In this document: positions 26,199 to 63,319 of the stretch, one piece after another
Layout of the letters: each line of letters begins with the position of its first letter
Position numbering within the stretch: the first letter of the stretch is position 1
Assembly (NCBI GenBank): GCA_021292105.1
Contig: CM037872.1
Span: 6,001,291 to 6,065,290, forward strand
Length of the DNA stretch: 64,000 bases
Direction of reading: 5' to 3'
From: Anadara kagoshimensis
Lineage: Eukaryota > Mollusca > Bivalvia > Arcoida > Arcidae
The notes under the pieces: model-generated
The model's database searches: none
The model's input: the letters and a program-made list of their open reading frames with translations, nothing else
What the model was told of the DNA's origin: nothing
Made by a program: the position numbers and the translations under genes

Positions 26199-26298
26199 AT
26201 GTTTTGGACTGTAGTGATAAGCAGTAGTATCATCGTCTTCTTGTGGAAGATTTTACAGCCCAAGTCTCCAGCCATCTGTGGTGTCTATAGACAACCAG
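26199..26298 (+). CDS. PEP synthase-like, exon 1: start and hydrophobic anchor
   Basis: Encodes residues 1-33 and ends in phase 1 at donor gtatgc. [19 protein letters not shown] is a short N-terminal membrane segment followed by basic residues, which suggests a signal anchor rather than a cleaved signal. No bacterial family member has this segment. Confidence 0.85.

Positions 26299-63319: not shown

What the first reader, a model, noticed from the sequence alone, without database searches (positions are those of the whole stretch)
26199..63319. Bacterial-style PEP synthase / rifampicin-phosphotransferase in an animal genome with 39 exons
All landmarks of a three-domain ATP:His phosphotransferase are intact, including the GGKG loop, VRSSA Arg and candidate phosphohistidine. 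The NIGE..PG..SPLT and GHR motifs place the middle domain nearer rifampicin phosphotransferases than classical PEP synthase. Full intronisation rules out contamination. An animal substrate is not known to me: it could be a small xenobiotic, or pyruvate.
Basis: partly seen in the sequence, partly recalled or inferred. Interest (0 to 1): 0.75.

Follow-up and report, generated by a model that had tools for sequence, protein, structure and literature searches.

The report
Animal-type RPH kinase fused to DUF7064
An intron-rich eukaryotic gene encodes an enzyme built like the bacterial kinases that phosphorylate drugs and phenols, fused to a second bacterial-type domain that in bacteria often lies close to small-molecule kinase genes, which suggests that the protein phosphorylates an unknown hydroxyl compound and then processes it.

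Summary
One plus-strand gene, 26199-63319, splices as 37 GT-AG exons into 1253 codons without a stop; its 3' end lies beyond the window. ATP-grasp, middle and swivel-His domains stand in the order of rifampicin phosphotransferase (RPH), not of PEP synthase. The middle domain matches an RPH-type profile built without it (E 1.2e-36); the best PEP synthase has 4.5. The ATP-site, phosphate-transfer and histidine residues of RPH are kept. Scores lie far below every curated RPH and PEP synthase cut-off, so it is a relative and not a member. Of 15 bacterial loci found through such proteins, 11 carry an APH- or PPDK-type kinase gene; in Rhodococcus an RPH-type gene lies directly beside one. The window's protein thus looks like a covalent fusion of partners that bacteria encode side by side. 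Best reading: a membrane-anchored small-molecule dikinase whose product passes to the DUF domain, perhaps for phosphate elimination, as mammalian ACAD10/11 do with unrelated domains.

The parts
26199..26298 (+). Exon 1: start codon and anchor-like hydrophobic stretch (residues 1-33)
   Evidence: the only 19-residue windows over 1.6 on the Kyte-Doolittle scale begin at residues 1 and 2; no signal predictor was run
27252..27501 (+). Exon 2: DUF7065-like part
   Evidence: similarity to Variovorax/Cupriavidus proteins
28617..28730 (+). Exon 3: DUF7065-like part
   Evidence: phase and splice scores
30083..30192 (+). Exon 4: DUF7065-like part with HYEQ...RDHSIG motif
31749..31804 (+). Exon 5: completes the RDHSIG-IRDW motif
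   Evidence: Best of 9 candidates that fit phase and splice limits
34529..34581 (+). Exon 6: DUF7064-like part; a tandem second copy follows at 34631-34683
35323..35450 (+). Exon 7: DUF7064-like part
35997..36228 (+). Exon 8: DUF7064-like part (residues 271-347)
37809..37995 (+). Exon 9: linker and GGKG loop (K397)
38966..39028 (+). Exon 10: ATP-grasp
39852..39901 (+). Exon 11: ATP-grasp
40963..41123 (+). Exon 12: ATP-grasp, VRSSA (R497)
42128..42198 (+). Exon 13: ATP-grasp (T516)
42703..42767 (+). Exon 14: ATP-grasp
44236..44383 (+). Exon 15: ATP-grasp
44936..45056 (+). Exon 16: ATP-grasp
46093..46187 (+). Exon 17: ATP-grasp
46791..46862 (+). Exon 18: ATP-grasp, DVEW (E680)
47866..47972 (+). 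Exon 19: end of ATP-grasp, start of middle domain
   Evidence: one search ended it at 47951
48598..48670 (+). Exon 20: middle domain, NIGE..PG..SPLT
48953..49045 (+). Exon 21: middle domain
   Evidence: Splice scores and phase
49445..49612 (+). Exon 22: middle domain
50400..50531 (+). Exon 23: middle domain
51187..51271 (+). Exon 24: middle domain
52327..52415 (+). Exon 25: middle domain
52920..52982 (+). Exon 26: middle domain
53910..54005 (+). Exon 27: middle domain, GHR (H989)
54861..54920 (+). Exon 28: middle domain
55890..55990 (+). Exon 29: middle domain
56511..56577 (+). Exon 30: middle domain, RE..K phosphate-transfer block (R1066, E1067, K1070)
57378..57449 (+). Exon 31: middle domain
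58190..58281 (+). Exon 32: middle domain
59318..59396 (+). Exon 33: middle domain
60706..60757 (+). Exon 34: linker to swivel domain
61677..61753 (+). Exon 35: swivel-His domain
62445..62547 (+). Exon 36: swivel-His domain, phosphohistidine H1228 (codon 62544-62546)
63245..63319 (+). Exon 37: swivel-His domain; donor GTGAGT, the last exon(s) lie beyond the window

Best explanation
The gene encodes a membrane-anchored, RPH-type small-molecule dikinase fused at its N-terminus to a DUF7065-DUF7064-like domain. Proposed cycle: ATP binds the ATP-grasp domain; H1228 of the swivel domain takes the beta-phosphate (AMP and phosphate leave); the swivel domain moves to the middle domain, where R1066/E1067/K1070 pass the phosphate to a hydroxyl of a lipophilic substrate. 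The N-terminal domain then acts on the phosphorylated product (elimination, isomerisation or release of phosphate) or delivers the substrate. Shown here: gene, exons, domain order, retained residues, homology of both halves, and bacterial neighbourhoods. Inferred: dikinase chemistry (from RPH), membrane anchoring, coupling of the two halves. Guess: the chemistry of the DUF domain and the substrate.
For: RPH architecture: the swivel domain is C-terminal, 456 residues after the ATP-grasp, while in the 11 PEP-synthase rows it follows within 15 residues; PMC4844700 states the same difference (passage). Middle-domain profile built without the window sequence: E 1.2e-36; best of 200 shuffles 0.71; best of 12 central-swivel rows (11 PEP synthases and L100) 4.5. 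Best solved structures: Listeria RPH 5hv1/5fbs, E about 5e-85, in two stretches that leave query 353-601 unaligned. Residues equivalent to Lys22, Arg117, Thr136, Glu297, Arg666, Glu667, Lys670 and His825 of RPH are kept. Fusion: N-terminal part 30% identical over 189 residues to a Variovorax protein (E 3e-11 against two sequences; E 4e-4 against the whole plasmid collection) that passes Pfam's cut-offs for DUF7064 and DUF7065; hhalign probability 97.1 over 138 columns against 8 relatives. Coupling: a DUF7065 gene starts 77 bases after the end of an RPH-type gene in Rhodococcus sp. ZPP (L089); of 15 loci found through DUF7064/65 similarity, 11 hold an APH- or PPDK-type kinase gene; within 3 genes of the DUF gene 10 of 69 genes are such kinases, against 1 of 111 further away (p 3e-4, 12 annotated loci). 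Precedent for a kinase plus an eliminating domain in one animal protein: ACAD10/11 (PMC11342911, abstract).
Against: No paper names DUF7064 or DUF7065 in the library searched (0). The DUF7064 Pfam score is below its cut-off and DUF7065 is not listed; the motif Trp of the bacterial proteins is Ile in the window (SIG for SWG). All but one of the partner kinases are APH-type or have a central swivel domain (L097, L100); only L089 has an RPH-type neighbour, and L088 one about 8 kb off. 4 of 15 DUF loci (L086, L091, L098, L101) show no such kinase. The two RPH-type Rhodococcus proteins lack the equivalent of Glu667 and are not the window's sisters in the tree. The proximity test includes L088 and L089, which were found through the kinase; within 2 genes it is weaker (7 of 46 against 4 of 134, p 0.007).
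Confidence: 0.5

Rival explanations
1. A stand-alone RPH-like detoxifying kinase: it phosphorylates phenols, plant or microbial toxins, and the N-terminal domain only anchors it or binds the substrate.
For: RPH-family enzymes inactivate rifampicin (PMC4844700, passages) and phosphorylate phenols (HpeHI, PMC12167813, abstract, passages and Discussion); a Bacillus phosphotransferase acts on zearalenone (PMC11768653, listing only). Catalytic residues kept.
Against: It does not explain why DUF7064/65 genes lie near kinases of different families in bacteria.
Confidence: 0.3
2. A PEP synthase that makes PEP from pyruvate.
For: ATP-grasp and swivel domains are shared; the AU test does not reject window with PEP synthases (p 0.25).
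Against: Swivel domain at the wrong place; the middle-domain profile finds the window but no PEP synthase; the threonine two residues before the histidine, present in 11 of 11 PEP-synthase rows, is Leu; 333 bits against a cut-off of 740 for TIGR01418; pyruvate is not an RPH substrate (PMC4844700, passage).
Confidence: 0.05
3. A biosynthetic ligase of the prodigiosin type (PigC/RedH), joining two small molecules through a phosphorylated intermediate.
For: 316 bits to PigC and 287 to RedH.
Against: Cut-offs are 1300 and 1350; RPH-like models score higher (417, 414, 399). No ligase-specific feature was tested.
Confidence: 0.08
4. A decaying or silent gene.
For: Exon 6 is duplicated in tandem; no expression data.
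Against: 1253 codons over 37 exons without stop or frameshift and with GT-AG ends; the named catalytic residues are kept.
Confidence: 0.05

Closest known systems
Rifampicin (rifampin) phosphotransferase RPH, Listeria (PDB 5FBS/5HV1)
   Same: Order ATP-grasp, middle substrate domain, C-terminal swivel-His; ATP-site residues, Arg666-Glu667-Lys670 block and His825 kept; best hit among solved structures.
   Different: About 29% identical over 903 residues to the L. riparia relative; 399 bits against a cut-off of 999; Gln337 is Glu; has an anchor-like stretch and a DUF7065/7064-like domain; eukaryotic gene with at least 37 exons.
Two-component phenolic dikinases (HpeHI, CreHI, PpsAB)
   Same: Same two halves as separate proteins, same expected dikinase cycle (PMC12167813); L002/L003/L005 resemble this arrangement.
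   Different: One chain in the window; the middle-domain profile finds L002/L003/L005 far more weakly than the window (E 3.5e-13 to 1.9e-8).
PEP synthase (pyruvate, water dikinase)
   Same: ATP-grasp and swivel-His domains.
   Different: Swivel domain position, middle domain, regulatory Thr motif.
Bacterial DUF7065-DUF7064 proteins (e.g. L087:4917-5954)
   Same: N-terminal part homologous, with an H...RD.S.G.R motif.
   Different: The bacterial ones seen here are separate proteins of about 300-360 residues; the window's Trp is Ile and its DUF7064 score is sub-threshold.
ACAD10/ACAD11 (mammals)
   Same: Works like: one animal protein that unites a small-molecule kinase with a second domain acting on the phosphorylated product (PMC11342911 abstract).
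   Different: No homology claimed: a different kinase domain and an acyl-CoA dehydrogenase instead.

Membership tests
Rifampicin phosphotransferase (RPH) | Domain order ATP-grasp, substrate domain, C-terminal swivel-His | tested here: met
   middle domain E 1.2e-36. Four of the six RPH-like rows scanned in NCBIfam (L006, L007, L012, L017; not L013, L001) pass the RPH cut-off, and all six have this order
Rifampicin phosphotransferase (RPH) | Catalytic Lys22, Arg117, Thr136, Arg666, Glu667, His825 | tested here: met
   K397, R497, T516, R1066, E1067, H1228; roles from PMC4844700 passages
Rifampicin phosphotransferase (RPH) | Score over the curated cut-off of NF041857 or NF000283 | tested here: not met
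   399 of 999 and 286 of 1700 bits
Rifampicin phosphotransferase (RPH) | Place inside the core RPH clade | tested here: inconclusive
   Outside the 26-row clade (98/99), but held inside is not rejected (p 0.39)
Rifampicin phosphotransferase (RPH) | Phosphorylates rifamycins | not testable with these tools
   Gln337, which contacts the product phosphate, is Glu; an assay is needed
PEP synthase (PPS) | Swivel-His domain directly after the ATP-grasp | tested here: not met
   456 residues between them in the window; at most 15 in the 11 PPS rows. The rows were picked partly by this span; two of them (L026, L040) were scanned and pass PEP synthase cut-offs
PEP synthase (PPS) | GG-x-T-[SC]-H motif with regulatory Thr | tested here: not met
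   GGLLSH in the window; Thr in 11 of 11 PPS rows and in 0 of 41 other rows where the motif was found, the window among them
PEP synthase (PPS) | C-terminal pyruvate-binding (PEP-utilizers_C) domain | tested here: inconclusive
   None in residues 1-1253; the 3' end lies outside the window
PEP synthase (PPS) | Score over cut-off of TIGR01418 or NF005057 | tested here: not met
   333 of 740 and 342 of 598 bits
DUF7065-DUF7064 proteins | Pfam gathering score | tested here: not met
   DUF7064 14.8 of 24.7 bits in the final model; DUF7065 not listed
DUF7065-DUF7064 proteins | Homology to proteins that pass both Pfam cut-offs | tested here: met
   L086 and L087: E 3e-11 and 7e-10 against two sequences, 4e-4 and 4e-3 against the plasmid collection; hhalign 97.1
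PigC/RedH prodigiosin ligases | Score over curated cut-off | tested here: not met
   316 of 1300 and 287 of 1350

The most novel reading that the evidence does not exclude
The protein is a bifunctional kinase-eliminase: the RPH half phosphorylates a hydroxyl of a lipophilic, perhaps P450-made, compound at a membrane, and the DUF7065/7064 half removes the phosphate to give an alkene, ring or isomer. DUF7064/7065 would then be a general partner that processes phosphorylated alcohols made by APH-, PPDK- and RPH-type kinases in bacteria, and this gene their animal fusion, an independent analogue of ACAD10/11.
Probability: 0.2. Interest if true: 0.85.

Novelty: new variant of a known kind. Interest (0 to 1): 0.6.

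Why it matters
RPH-type dikinases are known from bacteria as drug-inactivating and phenol-activating enzymes. Apart from a eubacterial-type PEP synthase reported in a bdelloid rotifer (PMC3499245, one passage, type not stated), none of the listings I saw treats such an enzyme in an animal. If the gene works, such a genome holds an ATP to AMP small-molecule kinase of unknown substrate, probably mislabelled as PEP synthase by automatic annotation (many invertebrate entries are so named, by recall). The fusion, with the bacterial neighbourhoods, also gives a testable role for DUF7064/DUF7065, which no paper in the library searched names.

Tried and rejected
PEP synthase, RPH membership and prodigiosin ligase were each tested and not accepted (see Membership tests). 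The tree of ATP-grasp plus swivel domains was meant to decide between RPH and PEP synthase. It supports the split, but its bootstrap had not settled, the three AU tests reject nothing (p 0.25, 0.39, 0.34; 51 rows, L100 and L002 left out), and the window joins the long branch L051 with low bootstrap (34) and a long-branch warning. Its place on the RPH side is left open. Neighbouring coding regions: 8 long ORFs of the window (5 upstream of the gene, 3 within its span, of which 45852-46238 contains exon 17) gave no Pfam domain over its cut-off. Rfam on the whole window: nothing. No structure was predicted: the spliced protein and loci from the fetch of an annotated region fall outside what structure prediction accepts, so it was not asked.

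Literature: 24 papers, 20 listed; 0; 0; 403 at two of three terms, 20 listed; 0; 7 papers, none on an animal protein by title; 0; 37, 20 listed; none of the 12 listed of 13,531 papers holds 'phosphoenolpyruvate synthase'; 4. PMC8100219 (passages) says that eukaryotic PEP synthase annotations are mostly fungal. A 2026 survey of chimeric HGT genes in arthropods has no mention of the six names sought in its main text (PMC13389597, find only).

Rows left out. The DUF loci are the best place per record only: 2 of 3 records and 13 of 17 (31 places in all there). That table used annotated names for 12 loci and so missed the second APH/EcKL-like gene of L090. L091's 'AAA family ATPase' was not tested for a kinase domain.

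Full report
WHAT IS THERE. A spliced alignment of RPH-type proteins to the plus strand gives scores six to seven times those of the reverse complement (646 v 93 and 726 v 113) and places one gene over the right-hand part of the window. I completed the model by splice scores and reading phase. The result is 37 exons from 26199 to 63319, 1253 codons, no stop, 36 GT-AG introns of 282-2724 bases. Exon 5 was the best of 9 candidates that fit the phase and splice limits, and it completes a motif (RDHSIG-IRDW) that I later found in bacterial homologues as RDKSWG-RHW. The coding sequence runs past the window: exon 37 ends inside the swivel domain at a strong donor. The weaker junctions are those of exons 1-8 and 21-26.

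DOMAINS. Residues 1-20 hold the only strongly hydrophobic stretch; lysines follow, so the rest would face the cytosol if this is a membrane anchor (inference). Residues 34-347 match bacterial proteins of 345 residues: 30% over 189 residues to Variovorax (E 3e-11) and 27% over 193 to Cupriavidus (E 7e-10), each against a set of two sequences; against the plasmid collection the E-values are 4e-4 and 4e-3, with only 3 records found. Both proteins pass the Pfam cut-offs for DUF7064 and DUF7065. A profile comparison with 8 relatives (3 of them Pfam-tested) gives probability 97.1 over 138 columns. The window itself stays under the DUF7064 cut-off (14.8 of 24.7 bits). Residues 392-708 are the ATP-grasp domain (PPDK_N, 7.5e-80) and 1194-1250 the swivel-His domain (4.8e-18). 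Between them lies the middle domain (about 722-1164). A profile of that region from 37 RPH-type proteins, cut from a joint alignment with the window's own row removed, finds the window at E 1.2e-36; the best of 200 shuffled copies has 0.71, the best central-swivel protein 4.5, and three two-component enzymes 3.5e-13 to 1.9e-8.

RPH OR PEP SYNTHASE. In the 11 PEP-synthase rows the swivel domain begins within 15 residues of the ATP-grasp; in the window 456 residues lie between. Those rows had been picked partly by match span, so the independent support is that L026 and L040 pass PEP synthase cut-offs, that L006, L007, L012 and L017 pass the RPH cut-off and L013 just misses it (976 of 999), and that PMC4844700 reports the same difference in order (passage). 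The motif before the histidine carries Thr in 11 of 11 PEP-synthase rows (GG-x-T-[SCA]-H), in 0 of 41 other rows where the motif was found, and Leu in the window (GGLLSH); L100, with a central swivel, also has Leu. PMC12167813 (Discussion) gives that Thr as the regulatory residue of PEP synthase. Of the residues that PMC4844700 (passages) discusses in Listeria RPH, the window keeps Lys22, Arg117, Thr136, Glu297, Arg666, Glu667, Lys670 and His825 as K397, R497, T516, E680, R1066, E1067, K1070 and H1228; Gln337 is E729. (The Glu297 and Gln337 mutants stayed active in that paper.) The numbering was carried over by motif from Listeria riparia L017. Glu at the Gln337 place occurs in 13 of 38 aligned rows, 12 of them outside the core RPH clade. 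The same paper expects distant clades that keep the Arg-Glu and Lys block to be phosphotransferases with other substrates. Best solved structures are Listeria RPH. NCBIfam puts PRK06241-type models first (417 bits), but the cut-offs are far away: RPH 399 of 999, PEP synthase 333 of 740, PigC 316 of 1300. In a tree of 53 rows the PEP synthases and L100 part from the RPH types, two-component enzymes and the window at 98/100, and the window stands outside the 26-row core RPH clade (98/99); AU tests reject neither window with PEP synthases (p 0.25) nor window with core RPH (p 0.39). So the verdict 'RPH-type, not PEP synthase' rests on architecture and motifs, and the exact place is open.

THE BACTERIAL COUNTERPARTS. 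Rhodococcus sp. ZPP (L089) has an RPH-type gene at 9923-12565 and, 77 bases on, a 'hypothetical protein' that passes the DUF7065 cut-off. In R. koreensis (L088) such a gene lies about 8 kb from an RPH-type gene. These two loci were found through the kinase. To look from the other side I took 15 plasmid loci found by DUF7064/65 similarity: L086 and L087 (2 of 3 records, 5 kb flanks) and L090-L102 (13 of 17, 8 kb flanks; left out were the query itself, a near-copy of L102 and the two weakest). An APH or PPDK_N gene lies in 11 of 15: L087, L090, L094, L095, L096, L099, L102 (APH by Pfam), L097, L100 (PPDK_N by Pfam), L092, L093 (APH by tblastn). None was seen in L086, L091, L098, L101. In 12 annotated loci (10 of these plus L088 and L089), 10 of 69 genes within 3 places of the DUF gene are annotated kinases against 1 of 111 further off (p 3e-4); within 2 places 7 of 46 against 4 of 134 (p 0.007). 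No genome-wide control was possible. HAD-type hydrolase genes follow the DUF gene in L100 and L101 by annotation, and an ORF with a HAD-like start does in L097 (not Pfam-tested). Cytochrome P450 genes occur in 4 of the 12 annotated loci (L088, L091, L096, L102). APH-type partners belong to a different family from the dikinases, which suggests that DUF7064/65 follows the reaction (a phosphorylated small molecule) and not one kinase family.

HOW IT MOST LIKELY WORKS. The kinase half should run the RPH cycle: ATP to phosphohistidine plus AMP and phosphate, swing of the swivel domain, transfer to a hydroxyl. Phenols and rifamycins are known acceptors in this family (PMC12167813, PMC4844700); pyruvate is not an RPH substrate (PMC4844700, passage). 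The DUF half probably acts on the product. The nearest worked-out parallel is ACAD10/ACAD11, where a kinase domain phosphorylates 4-hydroxyacyl-CoAs and a second domain eliminates the phosphate; ACAD10 also has a HAD domain that restrains the kinase (PMC11342911, abstract). That parallel is one of logic and not of descent. Steps shown: gene, domains, residues, bacterial neighbourhoods. Steps inferred: activity, membrane anchoring, coupling. Guess: elimination as the DUF chemistry.

LIMITS. That comparable proteins are widely annotated in invertebrates as 'putative phosphoenolpyruvate synthase' is recall, not a result. The neighbourhood counts come from one plasmid collection and a small set.

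Noticed in passing
34529-34581 and 34631-34683: Exon 6 is present twice in tandem, 49 bases apart with a TC repeat between. The copies differ by two synonymous changes; the second is followed by GTCTCT, a poor donor. Using both would break the frame, so it is either a mutually exclusive copy or a dead duplicate.
   Followed up: partly
59466-60165 and 53392-53897: Intronic minisatellites: 30-base unit x 24 and 60-base unit x 8.4, open in several frames and so giving long spurious ORFs.
   Followed up: no
11558-11866 and 13783-14091, minus strand: Nearly identical 102-codon ORFs about 2.2 kb apart, probably a repeated element.
   Followed up: no
602-993, 9822-10150, 32755-33272, 63612-64000: Further tandem repeats with units of 31, 49, 145 and 167 bases.
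   Followed up: no
L090:6818-7876: Gene annotated 'oxidoreductase family protein' is 42% identical to the APH/EcKL-type kinase in the same locus; the name looks wrong.
   Followed up: partly
L100:7893-13127, L097:7911-14818 and L101:7917-10680: DUF7064-type gene followed by a HAD-type gene (by annotation or start motif), with a dikinase whose swivel domain is central in L097 and L100; L100 and L101 lie beside microcompartment genes. A possible phosphorylation-based alcohol pathway.
   Followed up: partly
L001:50-5432: Halorubrum plasmid carries two RPH-type genes in tandem.
   Followed up: no
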